A DNA stretch of 64,000 nt, taken from assembly GCF_017875275.1 (NCBI RefSeq), contig NZ_JAGGML010000001.1, positions 186,001 to 250,000 on the forward strand, written 5' to 3'. Shown here one piece after another: positions 25,589 through 62,744 of the stretch. The notes beneath the pieces were generated by a model, which did not search any database, had not been told where the DNA came from, and saw only the letters and a list, made by a program, of their open reading frames with translations. Source of the DNA: Xanthobacter flavus (GTDB taxonomy: Bacteria > Pseudomonadota > Alphaproteobacteria > Rhizobiales > Xanthobacteraceae). Every line of letters starts with the position of its first letter. The first letter of the stretch is position 1. The position numbers were made by a program, and so were the translations under genes.

Positions 25589-29173
<3,585 letters not shown>

Positions 29174-40482: not shown

Positions 40483-40742
40483 GGCGTTGCTCCTTCCACG
40501 GGCTTGCCGAAGAAGCGGCGGCGGTTCGCCTCCCAGAGCGCGGCGCAGCGCGGATCGATGGGATTGGCCATCTCCAGCGTGGCGCAGCTCTTGAGGTCGG
40601 CCGAGGAGACGTTCCCTGCCTTCACGCTGCTGATAGTGACAGTCGGCTCGTGAGGCCTGCCTGAGGCGATGGCGAGGGCTGCGATCACCGCGCCCACAAG
40701 GCCGGCGACGACGAGGGTCCTGAGTGCAGTGCCCTGATCCAT
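40479..40742 (-). CDS. trbK: TrbK-like entry-exclusion protein (TrbK-alt)
   Basis: An 87-residue protein between trbJ and trbL with one N-terminal membrane helix (LVVAGLVGAVIAALAIASG) and a small periplasmic part containing two cysteines (LKSCATLEMANPIDPRCAAL) and the ending RRRFFGKPVEGATP. The position and pattern match the putative entry-exclusion protein of Tn4371-like and rhizobial trb operons, which blocks redundant transfer into cells already carrying the element. Confidence 0.85.
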   Translation of the reverse strand: MDQGTALRTLVVAGLVGAVIAALAIASGRPHEPTVTISSVKAGNVSSADLKSCATLEMANPIDPRCAALWEANRRRFFGKPVEGATP

Positions 40743-40751
40743 GGCCGCCCC

Positions 40752-41486
40752 TCAATTGCCGCGGAACATGGTGACGGCGGAGGACTGGTAGCTCGACCGG
40801 GTGGAGAAGCGCCGGTAGTGCTCCTGCCCCTCAGACACCGCCGTGGCACGCTCAGCTTCGGACAGCGCCTGCGCCCGGCCATTGGCGACCACCACCGCGG
40901 TGAGATCGGAGAGCTGCTGCGCCTGGAGCGCCTGGAGCTGGTTCCCTGCCTGCATGGCCTGCAACGCGCCGGTCGCCGCCTGGCTCTGGCCGACCAGTGT
41001 TGAGGCCTGGGTCCGGCCAATGTCGAGATTGCCGACGACGCCCGCCTGCACCCGCAGCGCATCCTGAAGACCGGCGACCGTGGTCTCCCAGCGGGTCTTA
41101 GCCTGGGTGACAAGAGCAGCGTCCGAGGTGCTCAGGGAAACCGAGCCGTACTGACCTTGGAACGCCCGGTCGATGGCGCCGACGTCATAAGCGATCTTCT
41201 GCGCCTGCCCGAGCAACTGCTGGGTCTGCTGGGCGGATTGCTGGAGCGCGCTGAGGGAGGAATACGGCAGGCTTGCGAGGTTGCGGGCCTGGTTGATCAG
41301 CATCTGTGCTTCATTCTGAAGCGAGGTGATCTGGTTGGTGACCTGCTGCAAGGCCCGCGCCGCCTGGAGGACGTTCTGGGCATAGTTGGAGGGGTCAAAG
41401 ACCACGGCCTGTGCCGCGGCCGGCGCGAGAGGGCACATGAGGAGCGGCGCAGCGACGAGCGCCGCCCGCAGCATCAGGCGGATCAT
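40752..41486 (-). CDS. trbJ: TrbJ, periplasmic mating protein (VirB5-like)
   Basis: ATG 41486 overlaps the trbE stop and gives 244 residues with a signal peptide (APLLMCPLAPAAAQA). The mature protein starts VVFDPSNYAQNVLQAARALQ, a TrbJ hallmark, and is mainly long helices rich in Gln and Ala. VirB5/TrbJ proteins sit at the pilus tip or in the channel and contact recipients. Confidence 0.92.
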   Translation of the reverse strand: MIRLMLRAALVAAPLLMCPLAPAAAQAVVFDPSNYAQNVLQAARALQQVTNQITSLQNEAQMLINQARNLASLPYSSLSALQQSAQQTQQLLGQAQKIAYDVGAIDRAFQGQYGSVSLSTSDAALVTQAKTRWETTVAGLQDALRVQAGVVGNLDIGRTQASTLVGQSQAATGALQAMQAGNQLQALQAQQLSDLTAVVVANGRAQALSEAERATAVSEGQEHYRRFSTRSSYQSSAVTMFRGN

Positions 41487-43918
41487 GAGCGTGTCTCCAG
41501 AAGGTCGAGGGTGGGGATGAGGTCGGCGGCCCAGCCGAGGCCCCGATGCCGTAGCCAGGCGGCGAGGAAACCATCGCGCCCATGCTCGGCGAGGATCAGC
41601 GAGAGCGCAGCCTGATCGGTCTTGGACCCGGCGGCGCACAAGGCGAGCGCCACCTGCGACAGCCCGAGCTCGAACAGGCGGCTGCCGCGTCGGGACTGGC
41701 AGTAATAGTCCCGCTTCGGGGTGGCCCGTGCGAGGATCTCGATCTGCCGGTCGTTGAGGCCGAAGCGCCGGTAGATGGCGGTGATCTGGGGCTCGACGGC
41801 CCGCTCGTTGGGGAGCAGCAGCCGCGTCTGGCAGCTCTCGATGATGGCCGGGGCGATGGCCGAGCCGTCGATGTCGGAGAGGGACTGCGTGGCGAAGACG
41901 ACGCTGGCGTTCTTCTTCCGCAGCGTCTTAAGCCACTCGCGGAGCTGGCCGGCAAAGCCCTGGTCATCAAGGGCGAGCCATCCCTCATCGATGATGATGA
42001 GGGTCGGAGACCCGTTGAGCCGGTCCTCGATGCGGTGGAACAGATAGGACAGCACGGCCGGTGCCGCGGTGGTGCCGATCAGCCCTTCGGTCTCGAAGGC
42101 CTGGACGAAGGCCTGCCCCAGGTGCTCCGCCTCGGCATCGAGCAGCCGGCCATGGGCGCCACCGATACAATAGGGGCGTAGCGCCTGTTTGAGATCGTTG
42201 GACTGGAGCAGGACGGCGAGGCCGGTGAGGGTCCGTTCCTCGACGGGAGCGGAGGCAAGGGAGGTGAGGGTCGACCAGATGTGCTCCTTCACCTCCGGGG
42301 CGATGGAAACGCCCTCGCGGGAGAGGATCGCCGTGATCCAGTCGGCGGCCCATGAGCGTTCGGCGAGATCATCCACACGGGAAAGAGGCTGGAGCGCGAC
42401 GCTGTCCTCGCTCCCATCGGACAGGCTCCCGCCGAGGTCGTGCCAGTCGCCGCCCATGGCGAGGGCGGCCGCCCGGATGCTGCCGCCGAAGTCGAAAGCG
42501 AACACCTGGGATCCAGCGTAGCGCCGGAACTGCAATGCCATCAGCGCCAGCAGCACCGACTTGCCGGCGCCCGTCGGCCCGATCACGAGGGTGTGGCCCA
42601 CATCGCCAACGTGGAGGGAAAAACGGAACGGGGTCGCCCCCTCGGTCTTGCCGTAGAACAACGGCGGCCCGCCGAAATGCGCGTCCTGTGCCTCGCCCGC
42701 CCACACCGCCGACAGCGGGATCATATGGGCGAGGTTGAGGGTGGAAATGGGCGGTTGGCGGACATTGGCGTAGACGTGCCCCGGCAAGCTGCCGAGCCAG
42801 GCATCCACGGCATTGATCGTCTCGACCATGGCCGTGAAGTCCCGGCCCTGGATTGCCTTCTCCACCAGCCGGAGCTTCTCGTCAGCGATGCGGGGATCGG
42901 CGTCCCAGACGGTCACCGTCGCGGTAAGATAGGCGATGCCGGCATGGTCGGCGCCGAGCTCCTGCAAAGCGAGGTCGGCATCCACCGCCTTGTTGGCGGC
43001 ATCTGAATCCACCAGTACCGAGGCCTCGTTGGTCATCACCTCCTTCAGGATGGCGGCGATGGACTTGCGCTTGGCGAACCACTGCCGGCGGATCCTGGTG
43101 AGGAGCCGGGTGGCGTCGGTTTTGTCGAGGAGAATGGCGCGGGTGGACCAGCGATAGGGAAAGGCGAGCCGGTTGAGGTCGTCGAGGATCCCCGGCGTCG
43201 TCGCCGTCGGGAAGCCGACGATGGTGAGGACGCGTAGATGCTCGGACCCCAGCATCGGCTCGAGCCCGCCGGTGAGCGGCTGGTCTGCCAGCAGGGCGTC
43301 GAGATACATGGGCGTCTCGGGAACGCGGACCCGCTGGCGCTTGGTCGAGACGCAACCGTGCAGATATGTGAGGGTCTCGGCATCGTCGAGCCAGCGGCAC
43401 TCGGGCATGAAGGCCTCGACGAGCCGCAGGACTCGGTCCGTGCGGTCGACGAAGGCGCCGAGCGCCTCATAGGGATCGACGCCACCACGCGCGCGGCCTT
43501 CATAGAGCCAGCTCTCCGCCCGTGCAGCGTCCTCCGCCGGCGGCAGCCAGGTGAAGGTGAGGAAATAGCTGGATTCGAAATGGCTGCCGGCTTCCGCGAA
43601 GTCGGCCTTGCGCTCGGCTTCGACCAGCGCGGAGGCGGGATCGGGAAAGACACTCGCCGGATAGGCACCCGCCGGGTGTCGCTGGGCCTCCACAAAGAGT
43701 GCCCAGCCGGAGCCGAGGCGGCGAAAGGCGCTGTTGAGGCGACCCGCCGCCGCCACCAGTTCGGCCGGCACCGCGGAATCAAGGTCCGGCCCACGGAAGC
43801 GTGCCGTCCGCTGGACGCTGCCATCCTTGTTGAGGACGACGCCAGAGCCGACCAGTGCCGCCCAGGGCAGGTAGTCGGCGAGCCGGCTGGCGTGACGCCG
43901 GTATTCCGCGAGGTTCAT
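41483..43918 (-). CDS. trbE: TrbE, mating-pair ATPase (VirB4-like)
   Basis: Starting from ATG 43918 (43921 is an adjacent alternative) the protein has 811 residues. It begins with the CagE/VirB4 N-terminal domain (LAEYRRHASRLADYLPWAAL). The ATPase has Walker A GPTGAGKSVLLALMALQFRR and Walker B LIIIDEGWLALDDQGF. KKNASVVFATQSLSDIDGSA is the usual downstream motif. It powers pilus assembly and transfer. The length is normal for the family. Confidence 0.94.
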   Translation of the reverse strand: MNLAEYRRHASRLADYLPWAALVGSGVVLNKDGSVQRTARFRGPDLDSAVPAELVAAAGRLNSAFRRLGSGWALFVEAQRHPAGAYPASVFPDPASALVEAERKADFAEAGSHFESSYFLTFTWLPPAEDAARAESWLYEGRARGGVDPYEALGAFVDRTDRVLRLVEAFMPECRWLDDAETLTYLHGCVSTKRQRVRVPETPMYLDALLADQPLTGGLEPMLGSEHLRVLTIVGFPTATTPGILDDLNRLAFPYRWSTRAILLDKTDATRLLTRIRRQWFAKRKSIAAILKEVMTNEASVLVDSDAANKAVDADLALQELGADHAGIAYLTATVTVWDADPRIADEKLRLVEKAIQGRDFTAMVETINAVDAWLGSLPGHVYANVRQPPISTLNLAHMIPLSAVWAGEAQDAHFGGPPLFYGKTEGATPFRFSLHVGDVGHTLVIGPTGAGKSVLLALMALQFRRYAGSQVFAFDFGGSIRAAALAMGGDWHDLGGSLSDGSEDSVALQPLSRVDDLAERSWAADWITAILSREGVSIAPEVKEHIWSTLTSLASAPVEERTLTGLAVLLQSNDLKQALRPYCIGGAHGRLLDAEAEHLGQAFVQAFETEGLIGTTAAPAVLSYLFHRIEDRLNGSPTLIIIDEGWLALDDQGFAGQLREWLKTLRKKNASVVFATQSLSDIDGSAIAPAIIESCQTRLLLPNERAVEPQITAIYRRFGLNDRQIEILARATPKRDYYCQSRRGSRLFELGLSQVALALCAAGSKTDQAALSLILAEHGRDGFLAAWLRHRGLGWAADLIPTLDLLETRS

Positions 43919-43931
43919 CATGGTGCGCCCC

Positions 43932-44204
43932 TCAGACCGACAGATGACCGGGGATGCGCAGATGGCGGCGCACCACATCGACGAAGAGCGGATCGCGCTT
44001 GGCGGCCCAGACGGCGGCGAGATGGCCCACGGCCCCGACCGCGAGCCCCACAAGCCAGAGCCTCAGCCCCAGCCCGACAGCACCGGCGAGGGTACCGTTG
44101 AAGATGGCGATTGCCCGCGGCGCGCCGCCGAGCAGGATCGGCTCGCTCAAGGCCCGATGGACCGGGACGGAGAAGCCCGGCACCCCGCCAATATCGCCCG
44201 GCAT
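43932..44204 (-). CDS. trbD: TrbD, small membrane mating protein (VirB3-like)
   Basis: A 90-residue protein beginning MPGDIGGVPGFSVPVHRALS and PILLGGAPR, typical of TrbD, with two hydrophobic segments (AIAIFNGTLAGAVGLGLRLW and VGLAVGAVGHLAAVWAA) and the end DVVRRHLRIPGHL. Its ATG shares one base with the trbC stop. VirB3-like proteins work with VirB4/TrbE in the inner membrane. Confidence 0.92.
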   Translation of the reverse strand: MPGDIGGVPGFSVPVHRALSEPILLGGAPRAIAIFNGTLAGAVGLGLRLWLVGLAVGAVGHLAAVWAAKRDPLFVDVVRRHLRIPGHLSV

Positions 44205-44536
44205 CAGACCAGCGCTCCGCCGCTGAAGGAGAAGAAGGAGAGGAAGAAGCTCGAAGCGGCGAAGGCGATGGAGAGGCCGAATACGATCTGGATCAGCCGC
44301 CGGAATCCGCCAGAGGTGTCGCCGAAGGCGAGCGCGAGGCCGGTGGAGATAATGACGATCACCGCGATGATCTTGGCGACTGGCCCCTGGATCGAATCCA
44401 GGATCGACTGCAGCGGCGTTTCCCACGGCATGGAGGAGCCGGAGGCGTGGGCCGCGGAGACAACACACACGCAGGCGGTGGCACCGGCCACGGCCTGCAG
44501 CAATCGGCGGTAGAATGGAGGGAGCGTGAAAGTCAC
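44204..44536 (-). CDS. trbC: TrbC, prepilin (VirB2-like)
   Basis: A 110-residue propilin. The signal region (LLQAVAGATACVCVVSAAHA) is followed by the mature pilin with two hydrophobic helices (AKIIAVIVIISTGLALAFGD and IVFGLSIAFAASSFFLSFFS) around a basic turn FRRL. The TraF-type peptidase at 57646-58191 is the likely maturation enzyme. The start overlaps trbB by four bases. Confidence 0.92.
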   Translation of the reverse strand: MTFTLPPFYRRLLQAVAGATACVCVVSAAHASGSSMPWETPLQSILDSIQGPVAKIIAVIVIISTGLALAFGDTSGGFRRLIQIVFGLSIAFAASSFFLSFFSFSGGALV

Positions 44537-45519
44537 AGGGAGGTTCCTTCTTCGGATGGAGCGGTGATGGGGATGACGCGGTAGTCGCCGTCGGGCCCGA
44601 GACCTTCGACGTGAGAGAGCTCGGAAAGGCGGGGCGCGGAGCCGCGGCCCGACAGCACGGCGATGAGGTCGATGGTCTCGGCGATCAGGGCCCGAGGTAC
44701 GGTGACGACGGCTTCCTGGATGAGTTGCTCGAGACGCCTCAAGGCCCCGATGGCGCTGCCGGCGTGGATGGTGCCGATGCCCCCAGGGTGGCCTGTGCCC
44801 CAGGCCTTCAGGAGGTCAAGGGCTTCGGCACCTCGGACCTCGCCGATGGGGATGCGATCCGGCCGCAGGCGCAGCGATGAGCGGACGAGGTCCGAGAGCG
44901 AGGCGACGCCGTCCTTGGTGCGCATCGCTACAAGGTTGGGGGCTGCGCATTGGAGTTCTCGTGTGTCCTCGATGAGGACGACGCGTTCGGAGGTCTTGGT
45001 CACCTCGGCGAGCAGCGCGTTGGTGAGCGTGGTCTTGCCGGTGGAGGTGCCGCCGGCGACCAGGATGTTGGCGCGGGAGGCGACGCCATGGCGCAGGGCT
45101 TCGGCCTGCGGCGCAGACATGATGCCGGCGGCGACATAGTCGTCGAGCGTGAAGACGGCGGCGGCCGGTTTGCGGATGGCGAAGGTCGGGGAGGCCACGA
45201 CGGGCGGGAGCAGGCCTTCGAACCGCTCTCCCGTTCCCGGCAGTTCGGCTGACACCCGCGGGGCGCCGGCATGGACCTCGGCGCCGATATGGTGCGCAAC
45301 GAGGCGGACGATGCGTTCGCCATCGGCGGCGGCTAATCGCTCGCCTGTATCGCGAAGCCCCTCGGACAGCCGGTCGACCCACAGGCGCCCGTCCGGATTG
45401 AGCATGACCTCGACGACGGCCGGGTCTTCAAGAAGGCGGGTGATCATCGGGCCAAGCGCGGTGCGCAACATGCGTTCGCCGCGTGTCAGGCCTTCCGAAC
45501 TGTGAGGTGAAGTCGCCAT
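44533..45519 (-). CDS. trbB: TrbB, mating-pair ATPase (VirB11-like)
   Basis: ATG 45519 follows GGGGATGAG and gives 328 residues (ATG 45534 is possible). The hexameric secretion ATPase motifs are present: Walker [16 protein letters not shown], the Asp box [31 protein letters not shown] and the His box GIGTIHAGS. It is the first gene of the trb operon. Upstream, where copG normally abuts it, there is a 5.3-kb insertion, so the operon may now need its own promoter. Confidence 0.94.
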
Positions 45520-45999
45520 CTCATCCCCGCCCATGCCGGGGATGATTAAAAGAGCCGGAAATTGGGAGGTTTCAACAAGCCAATGCGGCCGTCGCGGTCT
45601 GGCGTGCAGATACTTAAGAACGGCGGGATGCTGCTATTGTACCTGAGGACCGAAGACTCGGAGCAGAGGACATCGCAGACGACGAGAGCGCAGCATGCTG
45701 CTGTTGGAGCCTAATCGGCATTCACGTGGAGCGGTTCAAAATGCCCCCCGCCAGTTTCTAGCCGGGGGTCGGAATTGACCTGTCGCACATGTCCGCTCGC
45801 AGGGATTCTGGTAAGTCATCCGGGTTGCTAAATGCTGCCCATTGTCTCCAATAGCCGGAACGCTTCGCGTAACATTGCAGGGAGCCTGGCTCGCGCATTC
45901 TCCAAGTTTATAGCAACCAATTCGCCTGGGCGAGGCGTGGACGTGAAGGTTGGCTGGCATCTAACGTATGATTATTGCACTTATAAATCATGAACTTGA
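45520..45999. other. Non-coding stretch upstream of trbB
   Basis: About 480 bases between trbB and the plus-strand CoiA-like gene. No convincing gene is present. A C-rich block at 45740-45770 (around CCCCCCGCC and CCGGGGG) looks like part of an insertion-sequence end, but no transposase or matching terminal repeat was found. A promoter for trbB and one for the CoiA-like gene must both lie here. Confidence 0.45.
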
Positions 46000-50796: not shown

Positions 50797-51240
50797 TCAT
50801 AGTCGCGGTGTGGGAGCGGCCTTGTCCTCCGTGACCTCTTGAATGAGCTTCGGTCCCTTCGCGAGCCGCCGTCCCAGTGCCGCGACAAACGCTTCATACC
50901 GCTCCCCCGCTTTTGCCCTGGCTGCCTGGGCCGCGGGTTCGGGCAGGGCCGGCGTCGTGGTGAGCCAGAAACGGATGAACACGGCCAACGTCTCGACCGA
51001 GATGCCGACGTCGCGCTCCATCCGCGTCATCCGTCTGTCCAGTAGATCCAGGCGCTTGGCGATCGCGGCCTCGCGTCGTTCGGTGGCGTCCGGGGACAGG
51101 AACGACGCGATGGCAGCCTCGGCGACCAGCGACTGAGGCTGGTCCCGGCGCGCAGCGTAATCTGCGAGCAACGCCATGGTGTCCGGATCGAGATAGACAG
51201 TGATCTGCGCCTTCTTCTTGCGTGGGGCCATCGCCGTCAC
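50797..51240 (-). CDS. CopG-like ribbon-helix-helix protein of the transfer operon
   Basis: A 147-residue protein starting with a basic patch and ribbon-helix-helix (KKKAQITVYLDPDTMALLAD, then SLVAEAAIASFL), a coiled middle (ERREAAIAKRLDLLDRRMTR) and a hydrophobic helix (ETLAVFIRFWLTTTPALP). Its ATG overlaps the traG stop. The gene normally lies between traG and trbB in this element family; here the cargo insertion separates it from trbB. It may regulate the transfer genes. Confidence 0.85.
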   Translation of the reverse strand: MTAMAPRKKKAQITVYLDPDTMALLADYAARRDQPQSLVAEAAIASFLSPDATERREAAIAKRLDLLDRRMTRMERDVGISVETLAVFIRFWLTTTPALPEPAAQAARAKAGERYEAFVAALGRRLAKGPKLIQEVTEDKAAPTPRL

Positions 51241-53216
51241 AGCTCCATGCCGTCGCGGGGGTCGAGCGAGACCTGACGTGCCACCCCCTGCATGACGCGC
51301 GTCATGCGGCTGTTTCGGGCGACGTCGTCCTCACCCTCGTCCGCGAGATCGATCTCGAACTCGTTTCGGGGTTGCGCAGGGGTCTCGACCGGCGCCACCC
51401 GCGCCAGCTCCGGCTGGCGCCGACGCTCTGACCCGGTGGTGTCATCATCGTCAGTCCCCTCAACCATGAGGCTCAGTTGCGAGGGCACCGGCAGCGGCAG
51501 GATCGTCCAGTCGTCGGCCCTCCGCTCCCTTGGTTCCGAAAACTCCGGCGGCGGGAGGATCCGCTCCTTGAACCGCTCATCCTCATAGTACCGCGCCTTC
51601 TTTGCCCGGATCGGGGGCGTGCCTGCGACCATGACGATCTCGTCGGAGGGCGGAAGCTGCATCACCTCGCCCGGCGTGAGGAGCGGGCGTGCCGTCTCCG
51701 AGCGCGACACCATGAGGTGACCGAGCCAGGGCGACAGCCGGTGGCCGGCATAGTTCTTCATGGCCTTCATCTCGGTGGCGGTGCCGAGGGCGTCGGAGAC
51801 GCGCTTGGCGGTGCGCTCGTCATTGGTGGCAAAGCTCACCCGCACATGGCAGTTGTCGAGGATGGAGTTGTTCGGGCCATAGGCCTTCTCGATCTGGTTC
51901 AGCGACTGAGCGATCAGGAAGCTCTTGAGCTCGTAGCCCGCCATGAACGCGAGGGCGCTCTCGAAGAAGTCGAGCCGCCCCAGCGCCGGAAACTCGTCCA
52001 GCATCAGGAGGAGCCTGTGGCGACCGGCTTTGGCCTGAAGGTCCTCGGTGAGGCGGCGCCCGACCTGGTTGAGGATCAGGCGAATGAGCGGCTTGGTGCG
52101 GTTGATGTCCGAGGGCGGCACGACGAGATAAAGGGTGGTCGGCTGCCGGCGTGCTACGAGGTCGGTGATGCGCCAGTCGCAGCGCCGGGTCACCTCGGCG
52201 ACCACGGGATCGCGGTAGAGCCCGAGGAAGGACATGGCGGTGGAGAGCACGCCGGAGCGCTCATTCTCGGACTTGTTGAGAAGCTCCCGTGCCGCGCTGG
52301 CGATCACCGGATGGGGACCCGCCTCGCCGAGGTGCGGCGTCGTCATCATGGCGGCGAGCGTCGCCTCGATGGGGCGCCTGGGGTCGGAGAGGAAGACGGC
52401 GACGCCGGCGAGGGTCTTGTCGCGCTCGGCATAGAGCACATGGAGAATGGCGCCGACGAGCAGAGCGTGGCTGGTCTTTTCCCAGTGGTTGCGCTTTTCC
52501 AGTGAGCCCTCGGGGTCCACCAGGATATCGGCGATGTTCTGGACGTCGCGGACCTCCCACTCCCCGCGACGAACCTCCAGCAGCGGATTGTAAGCGGCCG
52601 ATTTCACATTGGTGGGGTCGAACAGCAACACGCGCCCGTGCCGTGCCCGGAAGCCGGCGGTGAGCTGCCAGTTCTCGCCCTTGATGTCGTGGACGATGGC
52701 AGAGCCTGGCCAGGTGAGGAGCGATGGGACGACGAGGCCCACGCCCTTGCCCGACCGGGTGGGCGCGAAGCACAGGACGTGCTCGGGCCCGTCATGGCGC
52801 AGATAGTCCCCTCCATGGCGGCCGAGCACTACCCCGTCGGATCCGAGAAGACCGGCTGAACGGATCTCGTCCGGCTCGGCCCAGCGGGCGGAACCGTAGG
52901 TCTCGACCCGCTTCGCCTCCCGGGCCCGCCAGACCGACAGGCCGATGGCGATCGCAATGGACAGGAACCCGCCCGAGGCCGCGATGAAGGCGCCTTCTGT
53001 GAAAATCTCCGGCGCATAGGCATCGTAGAAATACCACCACCAGAAGAAGGCCGGCGGGTGATAGACGGGCCAGTACCCCAGCACGAACCAGGGTGAGCCG
53101 AGTTGGTCCTGGAAGCCCAGCCGCCAGGCGACATATTCCGTCGCCCCCCAGGTGGTGGCGAGCACGATGGAGAAGACTGCGAGGATCTGGCCCCAGAGGA
53201 TCTTGGTCGCGGACAT
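51237..53216 (-). CDS. traG: TraG, type IV coupling protein (VirD4-like)
   Basis: The 659-residue protein starts with N-terminal membrane helices (LWGQILAVFSIVLATTWGAT and another near residue 85), then the coupling ATPase: Walker A APTRSGKGVGLVVPSLLTWP, IVHDIKGENW and Walker B RLLLMLDEFPALGRLDFFE. The C-terminal part (after RYYEDERFKERILPPP) is a variable tail. It brings the relaxosome to the Trb channel. It overlaps copG; the relaxase gene lies immediately upstream. Confidence 0.95.
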   Translation of the reverse strand: MSATKILWGQILAVFSIVLATTWGATEYVAWRLGFQDQLGSPWFVLGYWPVYHPPAFFWWWYFYDAYAPEIFTEGAFIAASGGFLSIAIAIGLSVWRAREAKRVETYGSARWAEPDEIRSAGLLGSDGVVLGRHGGDYLRHDGPEHVLCFAPTRSGKGVGLVVPSLLTWPGSAIVHDIKGENWQLTAGFRARHGRVLLFDPTNVKSAAYNPLLEVRRGEWEVRDVQNIADILVDPEGSLEKRNHWEKTSHALLVGAILHVLYAERDKTLAGVAVFLSDPRRPIEATLAAMMTTPHLGEAGPHPVIASAARELLNKSENERSGVLSTAMSFLGLYRDPVVAEVTRRCDWRITDLVARRQPTTLYLVVPPSDINRTKPLIRLILNQVGRRLTEDLQAKAGRHRLLLMLDEFPALGRLDFFESALAFMAGYELKSFLIAQSLNQIEKAYGPNNSILDNCHVRVSFATNDERTAKRVSDALGTATEMKAMKNYAGHRLSPWLGHLMVSRSETARPLLTPGEVMQLPPSDEIVMVAGTPPIRAKKARYYEDERFKERILPPPEFSEPRERRADDWTILPLPVPSQLSLMVEGTDDDDTTGSERRRQPELARVAPVETPAQPRNEFEIDLADEGEDDVARNSRMTRVMQGVARQVSLDPRDGMEL

Positions 53217-53240
53217 CCGGCGGTCCTTTTGCGCTTGAGG

Positions 53241-54980
53241 TCAGAGGCCGAGGCCGCGCTTGCGGCCGAAGGACCAGTCGATGCCACCATCGGACCGGGC
53301 GACACCGGAGACGTGCTTGCCGAGCTGCTTCTCGAGCGAGGGCGTCCAGGGCACGAGCTGGAAGCCGAGGCCGTCGTCGATCATGGCGAAGCGGCCTGAG
53401 GCCAGGGCGAAGCGCTGGCGATAGGTGCCGGTGACGTACTCACCAGTCCCGGCACGTTTGAAAGGCTGCCCGTTCCCGGCGGCGAGCCGCTCGCCCAGTG
53501 CGCTTATCTCCTGCCGGCGCAACGTCTCGATGAGGTCGCGAGCGAAGACGATGTGTTGGCCCTGACGCTGGGCGAGGCCTTCGGCGACCAGATGTACGGC
53601 ACGGCGGTCCATGGCATCCCGCACATCGCCGCCGAAGCCGTTGTCGGAGAGGGAGGCGGGCTCGCGGGCGAGCGCCTGCCGGTCGAGCCAGGTCGCGCCC
53701 GCCGCCGTGACCTGTCGCTCGATGTCGAGGTCCGAGCGGACCGCGAGCGCGGCCCGTTGTTGGCCGTGGGCATCCTCGAACCTCCTCAGCTCGACGATGG
53801 AGCCGGGAGCGCCATCGCCTGCCGCATCGAGGTCGGGCAGCCTGATGTGGTGGGTGCGCCCGTCGACGCCGTCGACCACGGCATAGGCCGTGCCCTTCAG
53901 CTCGTCGTCGAGGCCGCGGTCGACCAGGCGGCCGATGATGGGTGCATCGAGGTGCTCACCAGAAAGCACATAGCTTGCGGTACCGCGCTCGATGCCCTGC
54001 GAGGTCAGAGCCCGGTGCATACGCTTGATGATGTCGCCGCGCTCGCCCAGCGCGCGGAGCGTGGCCTCGGCCTTCTCGTCGATCACCCACTGGCCGGGGC
54101 CGACCTGATCGGCGAGTCCGATGGTTTCGAGCTTGCGCAGTCGTCCGACCTTCAGGGCATGGAACGCGTCCGGCTGGCGATCGGCATGGGGCGCGACGTC
54201 GATCACGCCGGTCTCGTGCTGGTCCCGGACCAGTTGACGGTCGAGCTGCGTCCACCTCTCCGCCTCCACTTGCCGCTCGATGGCGCGGCGGATGTCGAGG
54301 TCGGTGTGCGGCCCCAGCTCCTGGGTGACCAGATCCTGTGCGCGGGCGCGCATGCCCTCCTTGATGTAATCGCGGGAGATGACGAGGTCCTGGCCGTCGT
54401 CGGTCTGGCCACGCACCAGGATGTGCAGGTGGGGGTTGTCCGTGTTCCAGTGGTCGACGCCGACCCAATCCAGCTTCGTGCCGAGGTCCGTCTCCATCTG
54501 GCCCACGAGGTCGCGGGCGAAGGACCTCAGGTCGGCCATATCCGCCGCGTCCTCGGGCGACACGATCAAGCGGAAATGGTGCCGGTCGTCAGCGCATCGC
54601 TCCGCAAAGGCGCGGCCATCTTCCTCCTCGGCGCCCGGCCCGAACAGGCGGGCCTTCTCCCCGTCCTGGGTCGCGCCCTCCCGGCGCAGGTAGGAGAGAT
54701 GCGCGATCAGCGGTGTGGCGCGGGCGGTGTGGCGCACCACGCGGGTCTTGATGACGACGACGCGCGAGCGACCCGTGAGCAGGCGGTTGGCCTGGATGCT
54801 CGCCGTCCGCCCGCGGCCGAAGTGCGAGCGGGTGCCGGAGGTGAGGCGGCCGGATCGGGAGACGTGGCCACCGGCCTTCTGGGCCGCGGCGAGGGCCTGG
54901 GCGATGAAGGGACGGGCCCTCTGGGCACGGGACGAGCGGATGCGGCCGGGCCGGACGCGGAATTCCCGGTCATCGGTCAT
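53241..54980 (-). CDS. rlxS: Relaxase of VirD2/DUF3363 type
   Basis: From ATG 54980 the protein has 579 residues (54995 is an alternative). The N-terminus is basic. The relaxase core has an Arg/Tyr-bearing LIAHLSYLRREG, RHHFRLIVSPEDAADMAD and the metal-binding His motif WVGVDHWNTDNPHLHILVRG. The C-terminal half is the DUF3363 region (for example LERGTASYVL-type and VTAAGATWLDRQAL). It nicks the origin of transfer and leads the strand into the recipient. The origin itself probably lies in the 555 bases upstream. Confidence 0.92.
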   Translation of the reverse strand: MTDDREFRVRPGRIRSSRAQRARPFIAQALAAAQKAGGHVSRSGRLTSGTRSHFGRGRTASIQANRLLTGRSRVVVIKTRVVRHTARATPLIAHLSYLRREGATQDGEKARLFGPGAEEEDGRAFAERCADDRHHFRLIVSPEDAADMADLRSFARDLVGQMETDLGTKLDWVGVDHWNTDNPHLHILVRGQTDDGQDLVISRDYIKEGMRARAQDLVTQELGPHTDLDIRRAIERQVEAERWTQLDRQLVRDQHETGVIDVAPHADRQPDAFHALKVGRLRKLETIGLADQVGPGQWVIDEKAEATLRALGERGDIIKRMHRALTSQGIERGTASYVLSGEHLDAPIIGRLVDRGLDDELKGTAYAVVDGVDGRTHHIRLPDLDAAGDGAPGSIVELRRFEDAHGQQRAALAVRSDLDIERQVTAAGATWLDRQALAREPASLSDNGFGGDVRDAMDRRAVHLVAEGLAQRQGQHIVFARDLIETLRRQEISALGERLAAGNGQPFKRAGTGEYVTGTYRQRFALASGRFAMIDDGLGFQLVPWTPSLEKQLGKHVSGVARSDGGIDWSFGRKRGLGL

Positions 54981-55535
54981 GACGCGCCCCTGCAAGGTGG
55001 GGGAAGGCCAACAGGATCAGTGACTTGAGTACTCGATGCACATTGTCGAGCAGCAGCGCAATGTGCGTTTGGCTCAAAATTCCCAAGCAAAAACAACCGC
55101 CCGACCTCAGCGCACCTTGCGCCCTTTTATCTCGCCCTCCTAATCGGTCGTATTTCCACTGCTCTTGCGGACATCGTCGTTCATCCTTCCCGATGCGAGA
55201 ATATACTATGCTGTTCGCCACGGCACGCCTCCGCTCGCGGGCTTCGAGTTCCGATGCGCCTTGCACTCCTCCGCGCTCTGCGACGGGGTGTTCCGGCTGC
55301 ACGTCGGCAGCGCTCGAACCGTCGCGGCGCACTTTTCCATCGGATTGACGGAGCATCGTCACAGGCAATCGAGCGCGGTCCGGCCGTCTTCCGATCGGCA
55401 CAGCCGCAGGCAAGATAACGTGCGTTCCGTCGGTCCTGGTCTGCATCGGTCCTCATCCGCCGAGGGCGGATCTCCATGTTCAGAATGGCGTCCGTCAGTT
55501 GCGGGCGCGCTGCATGTCTCGTGTCAGCAAGTTGC
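54981..55535. other. Non-coding region between relaxase and IS110, candidate oriT location
   Basis: About 555 bases without a credible gene. In related elements the origin of transfer lies upstream of the relaxase gene, which is here. A small perfect hairpin, TCCGCC-GAG-GGCGGA, occurs near 55457-55471. No known nic consensus was recognised, so the placement is only suggested. Part of the right side probably belongs to the IS110 element. Confidence 0.4.
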
Positions 55536-56624: not shown

Positions 56625-56814
56625 CACCCGCCTCCTGCGTTGCGTAACGCGGGAGATTTTACCGGGCGGCGAAGCTGTTGGTGGCGCGCTCTTCGGCGGG
56701 GAACCGTCCTGCCGATTACGGGCGGCAATCGGACGGTTGTGTCCTGCGTCTCCCATCCCGCCCCTCGCCTGAACACGAGAGGCCCCGCCAATCTGCGAAT
56801 GAGCCCGGTCGTGG

Positions 56815-57645: not shown

Positions 57646-58191
57646 TCAGCGCGTCGGCGCACGCCAGACGAAGTGCCCATCGCCGGCCTCATCGGTGTAG
57701 AGCGGCACGGCGCGGCCGATCACGGTGCTGGCGGGCAGTGGCCCGAAATACCGCCCATCGAGACTGTCGGGCACATCGAAGTTCATGAGGAAGAGCTCGC
57801 CGTGGGCGATGCGACGGCATCCGCGCCAGACCGGCAGGGGACGTCCCATGCGGTCGCGCTCCAGCGCCTCACCGTAAGCCACGCCATCGACGGTGATGGT
57901 GCCGTCTTTGCGGCAGACCTCCTGCCCGGGAAGCGCCGCCACGCGCTTCATCAATGGGACGCCGGCGCCCACATAGGCGCGCTCCACCAGGAAGCGGGCG
58001 AGCGCTGCCGGCGGCGTGATGGCGAGGAGGTCCATGACATCGAGCCTGCGCGCGGGCTCGATTTCGTAGAGCCCGACGGGCGCGCTGGCGGAGACGTTCC
58101 ACACCAGCTTGAGCGGTGTCGGAACAAAGGCGGCCGCCGCCGCCCCCATCACCGAGAAATACGTCACCATGACATAGCCGAAGCGGGTCAT
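57646..58191 (-). CDS. traF: TraF, S26-family peptidase for conjugative pilin
   Basis: A 181-residue inner-membrane protease starting with one membrane helix (YVMVTYFSVMGAAAAAFV). The catalytic Ser is in NVSASAPVGLYEI, the catalytic Lys in LMKRVAALPGQEV, and the end includes YFGPLPASTVIGRAVPLYT. TraF enzymes mature and cyclise TrbC pilin. ATG 58191 overlaps the DUF2840 stop. Confidence 0.92.
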   Translation of the reverse strand: MTRFGYVMVTYFSVMGAAAAAFVPTPLKLVWNVSASAPVGLYEIEPARRLDVMDLLAITPPAALARFLVERAYVGAGVPLMKRVAALPGQEVCRKDGTITVDGVAYGEALERDRMGRPLPVWRGCRRIAHGELFLMNFDVPDSLDGRYFGPLPASTVIGRAVPLYTDEAGDGHFVWRAPTR

Positions 58192-58718
58192 TCTTCGCAC
58201 TCCCGCCGCTTGAGCCACGCGTGATGGCGCTCAGTCGTGTAGGCGCGGGGCATGTGGCCGGCGATCAGGCGGTTGTGGACGTGCCGCCAGTGGTCGGGGG
58301 CGACATCCGCGCCGTTGACGCCGATGGCCTCGACGGCATCCACGTGCTGGAGCACTTTCTCGACCTTCGGCCAGCCGTCGGCGCGCAGCAGGATCTCTCC
58401 GCCGGGACGCACGAAGGGCAGCGTCTGGTAGGCCTCGCCGGGTGCGACGGCGCGCACGATGTCGATGCGCGACACCACGGTGCCGAAGTCGTTTGCAGCC
58501 CAGCGGACGAAGGCGAAGATGGAGTTCGGCGCAAACGATACGATGCGGCGGCTACGGTCGAGAGTTTGTGCCTGCGCAGGCCGGCCGAAGCGGATCCAGT
58601 TCTCGATCCGCTTCTCGATCCAGGTCAGCTCCACATGGGTGAGCGGGTCTGGGGTCGGCGCGGCGGGTGATGGGGCGATGGGTTTGGGAACAGAGGATGG
58701 CACCGGCGGGCTCATCAT
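58188..58718 (-). CDS. DUF2840 protein
   Basis: A 176-residue soluble protein after a Pro-rich start, with LTHVELTWIEKRIENWIRFG, FAPNSIFAFVRWAANDFGTV and DILRAV-like segments typical of DUF2840, a family found almost only between parA and traF in these mobile elements. It contains no catalytic signature. It overlaps both neighbours by four bases. Function unknown. Confidence 0.85.
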   Translation of the reverse strand: MMSPPVPSSVPKPIAPSPAAPTPDPLTHVELTWIEKRIENWIRFGRPAQAQTLDRSRRIVSFAPNSIFAFVRWAANDFGTVVSRIDIVRAVAPGEAYQTLPFVRPGGEILLRADGWPKVEKVLQHVDAVEAIGVNGADVAPDHWRHVHNRLIAGHMPRAYTTERHHAWLKRRECEE

Positions 58719-58966
58719 GAGGCCTCTCCTGATGTCGGGGGAAATTCTCGGGCGAGGAGATCGCGGAGCATGTCCGCGACGGTCTGGCCGCGACCGAAGG
58801 CGGCGATCTTGATGCGCCCGCGCAGGTCGGGCGTGACGTCGATGGTGAGCCGCGCGGTAAAGCCGCCGGTGACGTCATTTGACGTCTTCGCCTCCGCAGC
58901 CTTGATCCACTGCTCCGGATCAGCCGGCCGCGCGGCGAAGCCCTTGCGGGTCGGCGGTGCGCTCAT
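58715..58966 (-). CDS. Ribbon-helix-helix partition-type protein
   Basis: An 83-residue protein with a flexible N-terminus (PTRKGFAARPADPEQWIKAA) and a C-terminal ribbon-helix-helix: FTARLTIDVTPDLRGRIKIA and FGRGQTVADMLRDLLAREF. It follows parA with a four-base overlap, as ParG-type centromere binders or regulators do. A partner role for ParA is likely. Confidence 0.78.
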   Translation of the reverse strand: MSAPPTRKGFAARPADPEQWIKAAEAKTSNDVTGGFTARLTIDVTPDLRGRIKIAAFGRGQTVADMLRDLLAREFPPTSGEAS

Positions 58967-59616
58967 GGTAGGCGTCCATAACCGGCGAGACCGACGATCT
59001 CCGCCGCCAGCGCCGTGATCTCGCGCGCAGCCGGGCCACGTTCGTCCAGCTCGCTGACGAGCCGCCCGGACTGTGCCGACATGGCGAAGGCGACGCGCTG
59101 GCCAATGGTGGTCGCGAGCACGGGCGGATCGTGATCCGCCAGCGTCTCGGCCGTCTCACGGGCGAGCACGGTGCGGGCACCGCAGCGGTTCAGCACGAAC
59201 CGCGCAGCAAGCGCCGGTCGGTAAATGCGCGCCTCATTGAGGAGCGCGAGCATCTCCGCGGAGGCCCAGCCATCGAGCGGCGATGGCTGCGCCGGGATCA
59301 GCACGAGGTCGGCGGCGAGGAGCGCCGAGCGCATGAGGCCGGCGACGCGGGGCGGCCCGTCGATGACCACATGGTCGGCATCCCGCGCCAGCTCGGGGGC
59401 CTCCCGGTGCAGCGTGTCACGGGCGAGGCCGACGACGCCGAACAGGCGCGGCAAGCCCTCGCGGCTGCGCTGCTGCGACCAGTCGAGGGCCGAGCCCTGA
59501 GGGTCCGCATCGATGAGGGTCACGCGCCGGCCGCGGCTCGCCCAGGCGCCGGCAAGGTGCAGGGCAAGCGTCGTCTTGCCGACTCCGCCCTTCTGATTGA
59601 GCAGCGCGACGATCAT
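58963..59616 (-). CDS. parA: ParA-family partition ATPase
   Basis: The 217-residue protein has the deviant Walker A LNQKGGVGKTTLALHLAGAW, Walker A' VTLIDADPQGSALDW and the motif ADHVVIDGPPRVAGLMRSAL. It lacks an N-terminal helix-turn-helix, as in type Ib ParA. It probably stabilises the excised, replicating form of the element together with the RHH protein. It overlaps repA by four bases. Confidence 0.92.
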   Translation of the reverse strand: MIVALLNQKGGVGKTTLALHLAGAWASRGRRVTLIDADPQGSALDWSQQRSREGLPRLFGVVGLARDTLHREAPELARDADHVVIDGPPRVAGLMRSALLAADLVLIPAQPSPLDGWASAEMLALLNEARIYRPALAARFVLNRCGARTVLARETAETLADHDPPVLATTIGQRVAFAMSAQSGRLVSELDERGPAAREITALAAEIVGLAGYGRLP

Positions 59617-60767
59617 CGACGGCCTCCCGATGCGTTCGCGGGAGGCAGATCGGCTACGGGAAGAGGTTCTGGCGCCTGAAATCCGTCTTTACGGAAAGAC
59701 GGAAGACCCTCATCCTTAGAGGTGCGCAGATGGGCAGCTTTTTGGGCCGGCTGAGCGCGGTTATCCACATCGCCCGCGCGCCTTTTAAAGTTAGACTCTA
59801 TGTTAGAGTCTAAGTTAAGAGCGCGATTTTGCGTTTTCGGGCTTAGGGTTAACCCCTGTTTCGGTTCCTGAAAGCACGAGGGGCCGGTTCCTGATGGCAC
59901 GTGGCACCGGGTTCCCGATGGCACGAAGGGATTCACAGGTTGTCCACAGGCCGGCTCGAAGGCGAGCAGCGTGCGCGCACCCGCGTCACACTCCAGAAAC
60001 AGGGTGTAGCCGGGCAGCGGCTGGCGGCGGATGATGTCCCGCAGCTCGAAGGCGAAGCGCTTGAACGGCGAGAGGCTACCGGACTTGAGGTGCAGGTGGC
60101 GGAAGTCGAAGCGCCAGCCGTTGTGCTGGCGGCCGCCGTGCTTGCGCACCAGCCGGTAGAGCCAGCGGTCGAGCCCGCCCGTCAGGTCGAAATAGGCCCG
60201 GTCGATGGTGAGAACGAGGGCATCTTCGAGAATGGCGCAATAGAACCAGTCAGGAACGATGAGCTCGATTCCCGCGGGTCTGCCATCCCGGTCGGTGCGC
60301 TCCTTCCACTCGTTGATCCAGGAGAAGCGATGGCGCCGTCCCTCGGCCCGCTGGCGGATCGAGGTGGACACGGTTGTGGATTGCAGCCGGTCGAGCGCCG
60401 CCTTCAGGCGCTGGTAGTCCCGCAGCGAGGTGCCGCGCCCCACGAACCTGAGGATCTCATAGGGGGTGGCGACCATGAAGCGCGACGTGCGCAGGCCAGC
60501 GTCGCGGGCCTCCACGATCTGGCTCGCCGCCCAGATCAGGATGTCGGCGTCCCAGATGGTCGCCATGCCGTGGTCAGGCACGGCCTCGACCCGGATGGAG
60601 ACATCGCCGGCGGCAAAATCGATGGGCGCGATACGATGGGTCTTGGAGAGGGAGAAGAAGGGATAGGCCATGAGATCCTGCGCATCCCGTGGCGCGAACG
60701 CGCCGGGAAGCGCGCGGAACAGATCGAGCTGTCCGCGCTCCGGCTGGGAGCGATGCCGCGCCGCCAT
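59613..60767 (-). CDS. repA: RepA-type replication initiator
   Basis: A 384-residue protein with the RepA replication-initiator pattern: DLMAYPFFSLSKTHRIAPID, ATIWDADILIWAASQIVEAR, ATPYEILRFVGRGTSLRDYQ and GGLDRWLYRLVRKHGGRQHN. The last about 90 residues are low-complexity and not conserved. Presence of repA-parA in Tn4371-like elements is known and implies autonomous replication after excision. No iterons were identified nearby. Confidence 0.88.
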   Translation of the reverse strand: MAARHRSQPERGQLDLFRALPGAFAPRDAQDLMAYPFFSLSKTHRIAPIDFAAGDVSIRVEAVPDHGMATIWDADILIWAASQIVEARDAGLRTSRFMVATPYEILRFVGRGTSLRDYQRLKAALDRLQSTTVSTSIRQRAEGRRHRFSWINEWKERTDRDGRPAGIELIVPDWFYCAILEDALVLTIDRAYFDLTGGLDRWLYRLVRKHGGRQHNGWRFDFRHLHLKSGSLSPFKRFAFELRDIIRRQPLPGYTLFLECDAGARTLLAFEPACGQPVNPFVPSGTRCHVPSGTGPSCFQEPKQGLTLSPKTQNRALNLDSNIESNFKRRAGDVDNRAQPAQKAAHLRTSKDEGLPSFRKDGFQAPEPLPVADLPPANASGGRR

Positions 60768-60782: not shown

Positions 60783-61064
60783 TCAGCGTGCGAAACGGTG
60801 GGGCTCGACAACGCCGGGCAGGGCGTGGCGCTTGGCCGGCAGCACGCAGCCGCGCGGATCGGAGGTGGAGGTGACGGCGCCACGGGCGACCCAGGCCTGC
60901 AGGTCCTCGATGGCATAGACGACGCGTCCGCCGAGCTTGCGATAGCCGGGTCCGGTTCCGTAGGTGCGGTGCTTCTCGAGCGTGCGGGGCGAGAGGCTGA
61001 GGAAGACGGCGGCTTCCTTGGTGCGCAAGTAGCGTGGCGGCAGCGGGACAGCGTCGGGTCGCAT
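60783..61064 (-). CDS. rdfS: Excisionase-type helix-turn-helix protein (RdfS/AlpA-like)
   Basis: From ATG 61064 the product has 93 residues. A MerR-like helix-turn-helix of the AlpA/excisionase group fills residues 13-58 (RYLRTKEAAVFLSLSPRTLE and RKLGGRVVYAIEDLQAWV), with a basic end. Its place at the head of the repA-parA-traF-relaxase genes and beside the FseA-like activator matches rdfS, the recombination directionality factor of the Mesorhizobium symbiosis island. It should bias the integrase toward excision. Confidence 0.68.
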   Translation of the reverse strand: MRPDAVPLPPRYLRTKEAAVFLSLSPRTLEKHRTYGTGPGYRKLGGRVVYAIEDLQAWVARGAVTSTSDPRGCVLPAKRHALPGVVEPHRFAR

Positions 61065-61160
61065 GGATCGAACCTCCGTGGGCGATCTCGGGCCGCTGGT
61101 CATCAGCGGCGGATGGCGATCACGGTGGCGAAGGGCAGCCGTCGAGGGGGATGGGGAAGT

Positions 61161-61204: not shown

Positions 61205-61973
61205 CTATGGTCTTCTGCGATGACGCAGGAGCCTGAGATAGCCGCCGCCGATCATGGCGAGGCCGCCTTTGACGAGGCCGATGACCTTGTCGCGCAGCGC
61301 CGAGGTTTTCCAGGGCTCGGATGCCACGCGCTTGTGGCTGTAAAGGAAGATGGCGATGTCGCGATAGCTGGCGCCGTTCGCCCGACCATCGGCCGCCAGC
61401 ATCATGGTGCGCAGCCGGCCACGCTGCTGCGCGGTGATGCGGGTGTCGGGGATCGCCGGCCGACCCTCGACAGCACGCCAGAAGCGGGTCAGCGCTTCCA
61501 TCCGCCCTATCGTGTCCGCATCCAGCGGAACCAATGCCGCCAGCGGCGCATCGGGGCGAGTCCCAGCTAGCAGCAGCACCTGCGCGGCGTGGCGTGCCGG
61601 ACCATGGACCCAGTATCGTCCCTCGGTGCTATCGCGCGGCGCAACCATGCCATCGAACGACATGCTGGGCGCGCCCGGAAGAAACGCGGGCTGCTGGGCC
61701 AGAAGCACGATGGCCGGATCGACAACCGGCGACCACGGGACGTTCTGTTCCACAGCGGAGAGAGATGGCCGCGCGGCGAAATCGCAGCCCCCAGCGCTGC
61801 TCCACCTCCCGGGGGAGCGGGTCGGCGTCTGAGCCGGCCTCTACGAGGGAGTGGTAGTGGTCCTGGTAGGTCTCGTCTCGGCGTAGGCATTCCCAGGCGA
61901 GGCCCTCCACCGATAGCGTGTCGAAATAGACGTAGCTGGCATCCTCTCGCCAGCGCGATGTATCGGGCTTCAT
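61205..61973 (-). CDS. fseA: FseA-like excision activator, encoded in two frames joined by a +1 shift
   Basis: The first part (61973-61779, 65 codons) is a DUF6499 domain beginning KPDTSRWREDASYVYFDTLS and ending EQRWGLRF. The second part (61777-61205, 190 codons) continues AARPSLSAVEQNVPWSPVVD and contains the DUF2285 helix-turn-helix (RITAQQRGRLRTMMLAADGR, ASYRDIAIFLYSHKRV). At CGA-TTT-CGC (61784-61776) a one-base forward slip of the Phe tRNA from TTT to TTC joins the frames into 255 residues. FseA of ICEMlSymR7A is made by programmed +1 shifting between DUF6499 and DUF2285 frames, so this is probably regulation, not damage. Without slipping, a 120-residue product results. It would activate rdfS. 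Confidence 0.75.
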
Positions 61974-62100: not shown

Positions 62101-62361
62101 TCAGACAGCACGGCTGAGGAGGTCCTTGTAGCCGCTGGAGGCCACCCATCGGGCCCGGGCCAGATGGCTGTCATGGACATGACGGGCGCGTTCGGGCTCC
62201 CGAGCCGCGTCGATGCCGAACAGCACCGAGGCGATCTCCTCCCAGCCGGCGCCATCCGCCGTGGCGTCCAAAAGGCGCGCATAGAGCTTGATGTGCGCCC
62301 GGTCGTAGTCGGTGAGCTCGGGAGCGATTGGGACGGTGTCTGCAAACGCGTCGGTCACCAT
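62101..62361 (-). CDS. qseM: Small DUF2285-like protein (QseM-like antiactivator)
   Basis: An 86-residue protein: YDRAHIKLYARLLDATADGA, WEEIASVLFGIDAAREPERA and the end ASSGYKDLLSRAV. This is a stand-alone DUF2285-type helix-turn-helix, as in QseM, which binds and blocks TraR and FseA in the Mesorhizobium island. Its position, upstream of the fseA-like gene and divergent from a small XRE gene, is the same as qseM/qseC. The antiactivator role is inferred from this match. Confidence 0.65.
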   Translation of the reverse strand: MVTDAFADTVPIAPELTDYDRAHIKLYARLLDATADGAGWEEIASVLFGIDAAREPERARHVHDSHLARARWVASSGYKDLLSRAV

Positions 62362-62495: not shown

Positions 62496-62744
62496 ATGGA
62501 GATCAGAGAGGTGTTCGCCCGGAATTTGAGGGCTGCAAGGCGCGCCAAAGGCCTGTCGCAGGAAGAGCTCGCCCACCGCGCCGGGATCGATCGCACCTAC
62601 ATCAGTTCGTTGGAGCGCTGCGTGTATCACGCCAGCATTGACGTCTTGGACCGGCTGGCCTCTGCCCTCGATCTCGATGCTGCTGAACTGCTGAAGAGAC
62701 CCGCGGCTGAATCGCCTGCCGATCTGGAAGATCCGGAAGTGTGA
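62496..62744 (+). CDS. qseC: Small XRE-family regulator (QseC-like)
   Basis: From ATG 62496 the product has 82 residues and is almost entirely a Cro/C1 helix-turn-helix: FARNLRAARRAKGLSQEELA, HRAGIDRTYISSLERCVYHA and VLDRLASALDLDAAELLK. It is divergent from the DUF2285-like antiactivator gene. In ICEMlSymR7A the XRE protein QseC holds the decision between repressing and allowing qseM expression, and the same job is inferred here. A perfect GC-rich hairpin follows the stop. Confidence 0.68.
   Translation: MEIREVFARNLRAARRAKGLSQEELAHRAGIDRTYISSLERCVYHASIDVLDRLASALDLDAAELLKRPAAESPADLEDPEV

What the first reader, a model, noticed from the sequence alone, without database searches (positions are those of the whole stretch)
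61205..61973. Candidate programmed +1 ribosomal frameshift in an FseA-like excision activator
DUF6499 and DUF2285 halves lie in two frames, and a single forward slip at CGA-TTT-C (61784-61778) restores continuous homology (…WGLRF|AARPSLS…). FseA of ICEMlSymR7A uses programmed +1 shifting at the junction of the same two domains, so the split is probably a conserved brake on excision carried into a heavy-metal element.
Basis: partly seen in the sequence, partly recalled or inferred. Interest (0 to 1): 0.75.

Follow-up and report, generated by a model that had tools for sequence, protein, structure and literature searches.

The report
Conserved frameshift in mobile-element excision activator
A gene that probably switches on the departure of a metal-resistance mobile element in the soil bacterium Xanthobacter is split into two reading frames that ribosomes must join by slipping one base, a brake already known from relatives and found here to be widely kept among them.

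Summary
All 11 loci found in genome contigs and all three copies in this genome are split alike at CGA-TTT-C. In a wider sample of 158 non-redundant clusters, 132 are split by +1, 25 are in one frame and 1 is broken. The junction reads TTT-C/T in 128 of the 132. TTT, CGA and GGG are far commoner there than elsewhere in the same genes, and GGG is rare in single-frame relatives. This is an FseA-type excision activator, probably made by +1 programmed frameshifting. That mechanism and its spread are already published. Neighbours fit the known module: QseM-like and QseC-like genes, and an RdfS-like gene behind an FseA-box-like repeat. It is a new member of a known kind. One lead may be new. A closely related clade has TGT in place of TTT, yet keeps the split and purifying selection on both halves (FseA-box-like repeat in the three members checked), so the shift may not need re-pairing at UUU. 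No frameshift was measured.

The parts
61779..61973 (-). First half of the fseA-like gene: DUF6499 (PF20109), zero frame, ATG at 61973; the zero frame would run on to a stop at 61629
61778..61784 (-). Shift site CGA-TTT-C (0-frame codons CGA TTT; +1 codon TTC)
61788..61793 (-). Internal Shine-Dalgarno-like UGGGGG; 3 nt before CGA, 6 nt before TTT; predicted anti-SD duplex -7.7 kcal/mol
   Evidence: same motif described for FseA genes in PMC10359603 (passage)
61205..61777 (-). Second half: middle region and DUF2285 (PF10074) in the +1 frame, 190 aa
61153..61180 (-). FseA-box-like inverted repeat GGGGAT-16 nt-TTCCCC (5 of 6 positions match) upstream of the rdfS-like gene
60783..61064 (-). RdfS-like small HTH_17 protein (probable recombination directionality factor and target of FseA)
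   Evidence: PF12728, 1.2e-8, on 60783-61070; identity with RdfS inferred from position and box; no NCBIfam match
62101..62361 (-). QseM-like lone DUF2285 protein (86 aa, no DUF6499 found), probable anti-activator
   Evidence: PF10074, 1.1e-6
62496..62744 (+). QseC-like HTH_3 repressor, divergent from the qseM-like gene
   Evidence: PF01381, 9.3e-15, on 62499-62741
57646..60767 (-). Genes downstream of rdfS: RepA-like (59613-60767), ParA-like (58963-59616), RHH-like, weak match under the Pfam cut-off (58715-58966), DUF2840 (58188-58718), TraF-like S26 peptidase (57646-58218)
51237..54995 (-). RlxS-like relaxase (53241-54995; below the NCBIfam cut-off) and TraG-type coupling protein (51237-53216)
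36217..45534 (-). Mating-pair genes: TrbI (36217-37461), CagX/TrbG type (37458-38510), TrbL (39193-40755), TrbE type (41483-44053), T2SSE/TrbB-type ATPase (44533-45534)

Best explanation
[quoted passage not shown] Most ribosomes would end a short DUF6499 product in the zero frame. A minority would move forward one base at GGGGG-CTG-CGA-TTT-C and make the 255-residue DUF6499-DUF2285 activator. The activator would bind the inverted repeat in front of the rdfS-like gene and start excision and transfer. The QseM-like and QseC-like neighbours would be a further lock. Shown here: the split, its conservation, the codon-level constraint and the gene context. Inferred from the published R7A system: frameshifting itself, its low rate, DNA binding and the role in excision.
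For: The same +1 split at CGA-TTT-C is in 11 of 11 genome-contig loci and 3 of 3 own-genome copies. 132 of 158 clusters are +1 split and 128 of those 132 have TTT-C/T at the junction (126, two more by eye). A codon-blind reading anchored on Trp-Gly (126 of 132 clusters) finds TTT in 121 of 121 Phe codons, never TTC; 3 are TGT and 2 have TTT one codon later. Against the same genes: TTT is 220 of 861 Phe; CGA is 69 of 86 Arg at the site vs 388 of 3860 (p 1e-50); GGG is 95 of 124 Gly vs 261 of 1989, and 3 of 20 in single-frame relatives (p 1.8e-7). Anti-SD duplex median -7.9 (130 split) vs -5.15 (20 single-frame), p 6.7e-7. dN < dS for both halves in 21 of 21 pairs. No conserved start codon would serve the second frame alone in the six genes looked at. 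The FseA-box-like repeat matches in 5 or 6 of 6 positions in 39 of 96 regions, vs 76 of 1920 shuffles. The FseA frameshift is published.
Against: No protein or reporter data. The sequences are related, so the p-values overstate independence. Single-frame relatives exist, so the shift is not essential for the family, and one of them (L215) has an in-frame TTT-C without a split, so TTT-C alone is no proof of a shift. The published R7A site could not be fetched for alignment. No downstream RNA structure was found (mean z 0.05). 57 of 96 upstream regions have a weaker FseA-box match or none; 20 of these have no anchored pair at all. The repeat ends 88 nt before the rdfS-like start, whereas the legend places the near hexamer at 62-67.
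Confidence: 0.93

Rival explanations
1. The split is an inactivating single-base insertion; the gene is a pseudogene.
For: Single-frame relatives exist (25 of 158 clusters); L229 resembles the split junction but reads TTC. Two copies elsewhere look decayed (L056, L157).
Against: The same split is in 132 of 158 clusters over several families, with purifying selection in both halves and a codon choice that a decoding signal explains and coding does not.
Confidence: 0.02
2. The two halves are made as two separate proteins, DUF2285 from an internal start, which would act as a QseM-like anti-activator.
For: The second frame has a GTG at 61753; a lone DUF2285 protein is a known anti-activator (PMC10359603, passages) and public annotation lists two CDS in Sphingopyxis pMC4.
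Against: The GTG has no purine-rich site before it. Start codons in the second frame are not shared among the six genes looked at: L034 has none from -101 to +220 around the junction, L040 has only a TTG at +100. This reading does not explain why TTT-C is kept.
Confidence: 0.05
3. The shift is real, but the P-site codon is CGA rather than TTT: an SD-like element 3 nt upstream, as in prfB, loosens the weak I-A wobble pair of tRNA-Arg on CGA, and the next tRNA enters in the +1 frame without re-pairing, as proposed for yeast Ty3. The protein made is the same.
For: GGGGG lies 3 nt before CGA and 6 nt before TTT; prfB's slippery sequence lies 3 nt after its SD-like element (PMC12421855, passages). 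CGA is 69 of 86 Arg codons at the site vs 10% elsewhere. Natural TGT variants keep CGA and the split. A passage of the Atkins review says CGA is among the few codons that can replace GCG at the Ty3 site (PMC5009743).
Against: 61 of 130 sites have another codon than CGA, and of 59 anchored sites without CGA 57 have TTT and 2 have TTT one codon later. The base that model would skip is T in 124 of 126 anchored sites, which slippage at UUU explains better. TTT-T variants also allow perfect re-pairing. That bacterial CGA is read by an inosine tRNA is recalled, not tested.
Confidence: 0.3

Closest known systems
FseA (msi172-msi171) of ICEMlSymR7A, Mesorhizobium japonicum R7A
   Same: Two overlapping frames, +1 fusion next to the WGL sequence, SD-like UGGGGG; the same kinds of partner genes (QseM, QseC, RdfS, TraF, RlxS) as named in the passages
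   Different: Here the rdfS-like gene lies directly downstream and repA/parA-like genes follow it; no TraR/TraI was identified among the window proteins scanned; cargo is metal efflux. The R7A sequence was not aligned here.
prfB (release factor 2) +1 frameshift
   Same: Internal SD-like GGGGG and a short pyrimidine slip site
   Different: No stop codon in the A site, except in one relative seen (L214, TTT-TGA); the SD-like element lies 6 nt, not 3 nt, before the pyrimidine codon; the role is inferred to be a brake on excision, not feedback on a release factor
RovC of Yersinia (PF10074 namesake)
   Same: DUF2285-type DNA-binding domain
   Different: Called distantly related in PMC10359603 (passage); not compared here
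Sphingopyxis indica plasmid pMC4 locus
   Same: Gene order HTH, lone DUF2285, DUF6499, DUF2285, HTH, RepA, ParA
   Different: On a plasmid; the first HTH gene points the same way as the others, not divergent; annotated as two separate proteins

Membership tests
FseA-type frameshifted excision activator | DUF6499 domain with AWEFLRRN-like motif in the first frame | tested here: met
   PF20109 5.6e-21; motif reads AWECLRRD
FseA-type frameshifted excision activator | DUF2285 domain in the +1 frame | tested here: met
   PF10074 1.6e-35
FseA-type frameshifted excision activator | Conserved +1 shift site at the domain junction | tested here: met
   11 of 11 genome-contig loci; 132 of 158 clusters; compared with relatives, not with the R7A sequence itself
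FseA-type frameshifted excision activator | Frameshifted protein is actually made | not testable with these tools
   needs reporter or mass spectrometry
FseA-type frameshifted excision activator | Inverted hexamers 15-16 bp apart upstream of rdfS | tested here: met
   GGGGAT-16-TTCCCC at 61180-61153, 5 of 6 positions matching; further from the start codon than in the published logo
FseA-type frameshifted excision activator | Activates rdfS and excision | not testable with these tools
   gene order only
QseM/QseC switch | Lone DUF2285 gene adjacent to an HTH repressor gene (here divergent) | tested here: met
   62101-62361 (-) and 62496-62744 (+)
QseM/QseC switch | QseC operators between the two genes | not tested
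   intergenic sequence printed, no motif search made
ICEMlSymR7A-like ICE | rlxS, traF, traG and trb genes | tested here: met
   RlxS score 575.6 is under the NCBIfam cut-off of 850, TraF_Ti 93.5 under 100.25
ICEMlSymR7A-like ICE | Integrase and attachment sites | not tested
   no integrase among the proteins scanned, which are only part of the element; ends not mapped
prfB-type +1 shift | SD-like element 3 nt before the slippery codon, stop codon in A site | tested here: not met
   6 nt before TTT, sense codon CGC in the A site

The most novel reading that the evidence does not exclude
In a closely related clade (13 loci in 10 Xanthobacteraceae genomes) the slippery TTT has become TGT, on which tRNA-Cys could not re-pair at +1, yet the genes keep the split, the CGA codon and the G-run, with purifying selection (8 loci tested) and the FseA-box-like repeat (3 loci checked). 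These would be bacterial +1 frameshifts that work without P-site re-pairing, like yeast Ty3 (GCG-AGU-U to Ala-Val): CGA-UGU-Y read as Arg-Val, aided by an SD-like element at prfB spacing. If so, CGA may also be the true P-site codon in those ordinary TTT-C members that have it, including the window gene.
Probability: 0.3. Interest if true: 0.65.

Novelty: new member of a known kind. Interest (0 to 1): 0.33.

Why it matters
It adds a metal-resistance element to those whose excision activator appears to be made only by a rare ribosomal slip, and it shows codon-level conservation of the slip site across the relatives sampled. Annotation can report such genes as two fragments. The TGT clade and the 3-nt distance from the G-run to CGA give a natural experiment on what a bacterial +1 shift needs.

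Tried and rejected
Pseudogene or single-base insertion: rejected by relatives. Independent start for DUF2285: no shared start codon in six genes. Downstream RNA structure as stimulator: mean z 0.05 for +6..+66 over 130 sites, against -0.10 for a control stretch; the shuffles kept single-base composition only. A substitute CCC-C slip site in the TGT clade: looked at by eye; L049 has none in the stretch shown, so none is common to the clade. Two '+1, no site' clusters (L217, L219) have TTT-C a little downstream by eye. NCBIfam gave no family for the two halves, the RdfS-like or the QseM-like protein. A pattern search for TGT variants (391 genomes) listed 42 places in 38 genomes. Of the 30 made into loci, 8 show the DUF6499 motif, two of them new (L244, L247), and 22 do not. 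Of the other 12, 5 were already known fseA-like loci and 7 were not examined.

Rows dropped and limits: 9 DUF6499 matches with no DUF2285 partner and duplicates were removed before clustering. Five frame-0 clusters without a W-G junction were left out of the Gly count; these and L157 (and L056, had it stood for a cluster) were left out of the tree. The site finder looked only for TTT, then TGT, within 12 nt of the DUF6499 end, so the base counts at the site are partly by construction; one search repeats the reading with a codon-blind anchor and is the fairer count. For dN/dS I used 8 of 11 TGT loci then held and 7 chosen TTT loci. The FseA-box test used 138 of 208 genes with an RdfS-like motif within 900 nt, cut to 96 clusters; the shuffle moved blocks of two bases, and the scan began at position 40, so some boxes were missed. 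Not every match listed by the genome searches was fetched.

Full report
What is there. On the minus strand, DUF6499 (61973-61779) and DUF2285 (61777-61205) are in frames that differ by +1; the junction is CAG CGC TGG GGG CTG CGA TTT C|GCC GCG CGG. Pfam gives PF20109 at 5.6e-21 and PF10074 at 1.6e-35. The +1 frame opens 59 nt before TTT and the zero frame stops 150 nt after it, so the shift must fall within 209 nt. The window lies in a one-contig 5.35-Mb genome. The named loci nearest to it are Xanthobacter.

Conservation. In genome contigs 11 loci were found (a search that reaches close relatives only) and 11 of 11 have the +1 relation with CGATTTC. The window's genome has two more fseA-like genes (L002, L003), both split at CGATTTC. 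Searches of 198 genomes of the family, 289 of the class, 297 of the order and 398 of the phylum (overlapping draws), with stretches taken, brought the total to 239 loci, those included. After duplicates were removed, 180 are +1, 27 in one frame, 1 in the third frame and 9 without a DUF2285 partner. At 85% identity there are 158 clusters: 132, 25 and 1. The junction reads TTT-C in 121, TTT-T in 5 and TGT in 4; the two unassigned ones have TTT-C on inspection, so TTT-C/T is 128 of 132. I did not fetch every match that those searches listed. The split share is above the 61% in print, as my sample is centred on one family.

Codon-level signal. The finder looked for TTT and TGT only. A codon-blind reading anchored on Trp-Gly covers 126 of the 132 clusters: TTT 121, TGT 3, and two with another codon that have TTT one codon later; no TTC. 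Elsewhere in the same genes TTT is 220 of 861 Phe codons. CGA before the site is 69 of 86 Arg codons (388 of 3860 elsewhere). GGG after TGG is 95 of 124 Gly codons (261 of 1989), but 3 of 20 in single-frame relatives, Fisher p 1.8e-7. Predicted pairing with the anti-SD is stronger in split genes (median -7.9, n 130) than in single-frame ones (-5.15, n 20). The sequences are related, so these p-values are too small; the direction is clear. The tree (FastTree, 152 rows) needs at least 8 changes between split and single frame, 4 forced by well-supported branches. Among 20 single-frame clusters, TTC stands at the Phe position in L229, L230 and L233, and TTT in L215 and L218; L215 even has TTT-C in frame, so TTT-C alone does not prove a shift. 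L229 keeps GGG-CTG-CGG before TTC and resembles the split junction most.

Context. Upstream lies a lone DUF2285 gene (62101-62361, -) and, divergent from it, an HTH_3 gene (62496-62744, +), like qseM and qseC. Downstream lies a small HTH_17 gene (60783-61064, -) preceded by GGGGAT-16 nt-TTCCCC (61180-61153). An RdfS-like motif follows in 138 of 208 genes. In 96 non-redundant upstream regions, 39 have an anchored pair matching in 5 or 6 of 6 positions, against 76 of 1920 shuffles; 20 of 96 have no anchored pair. RepA-, ParA-, DUF2840-, TraF-, RlxS-, TraG- and Trb-like genes follow. Sphingopyxis plasmid pMC4 has a similar order, with the first HTH gene in the other orientation, and is annotated as two proteins. 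Metal-type genes are present: RND pump 25964-29173, P-type ATPases 19924-22173 and 31942-33945, and more beyond the window end.

What is known. Passages of PMC10359603 (with section 18) state that FseA is made by a low-frequency +1 frameshift of msi172-msi171, that 4709 homologues were found, about 61% split, and that WGL is encoded by an SD-like UGGGGG. PMC11963761, PMC8627217 and PMC5009743 were read as passages only, as were PMC12421855 and PMC6321510. The 2015 PNAS paper is not held, so I could not check which P-site codon it proposes. Searches for Xanthobacter with FseA and for DUF6499 listed one paper each (the first, PMC9601964, seen as a listing only), so I saw no paper on this Xanthobacter element; that covers only the open library.

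Mechanism (inferred). Zero-frame translation ends after a short product; a minority of ribosomes shift. The simplest reading is slippage of tRNA-Phe from UUU to UUC. Two facts make CGA worth testing as the P-site codon. The G-run is 3 nt before CGA, the prfB distance, and 6 nt before TTT. And a clade of 13 loci in 10 genomes has CGA-TGT-C/T; in the tree it shares a fork (support 92, order unresolved) with the window gene's clade. In 28 of 28 pairs of 8 chosen loci of that clade dN < dS in both halves. L034 has no start codon in the second frame from -101 to +220, and the FseA-box-like repeat is kept in L034, L040 and L050. Against it: 61 of 130 sites lack CGA, and the base to be skipped is T in 124 of 126 anchored sites, which UUU slippage explains better. 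A fourth TGT cluster, L163, has CGG-TGT and a changed W-R-L motif and may be decaying.

Verdict. Observation confirmed, interpretation supported, phenomenon already known. The gene is a well-supported new member; the TGT clade is the part that deserves an experiment.

Noticed in passing
L031, L033, L034, L035, L038, L040, L041, L049-L052, L244, L247: fseA-like genes with CGA-TGT-C/T in place of CGA-TTT-C that still keep the +1 split; purifying selection in the 8 tested and the FseA-box-like repeat in the 3 checked
   Followed up: partly
L214 (G573:C3:70939-72170, minus strand): A relative whose junction is GGG-TTT-TGA: a stop codon in the A site, resembling the prfB frameshift
   Followed up: no
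L229 (G1056:C2:1798473-1799695): Single-frame homologue with TGG GGG CTG CGG TTC, a natural uninterrupted version that falls within the mostly split part of the tree (long branch, moderate support)
   Followed up: partly
L215 (G558:C2:144218-145512): Single-frame homologue that has an in-frame TTT-C at the junction without a split
   Followed up: no
L002 and L003 (own genome, C1:2595995 and C1:318094): Two further split fseA-like genes, suggesting three related elements in one chromosome
   Followed up: partly
L056 (G050:C3) and L064 (G050:C1): Two copies with the same junction, but L056 has a second frame change further downstream, probably decay
   Followed up: no
window 48315-49337 (+) and within 55536-57260 (-): IS110-type transposases: the first by Pfam; the second recognised by eye from its translation, lying between the lytic transglycosylase and rlxS-like genes
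   Followed up: no
L240 (G000:C1:249001-268000): Metal-type genes continue beyond the window: NicO, RND pump with HlyD partner, two-component pair, P-type ATPase with YHS domain
   Followed up: no
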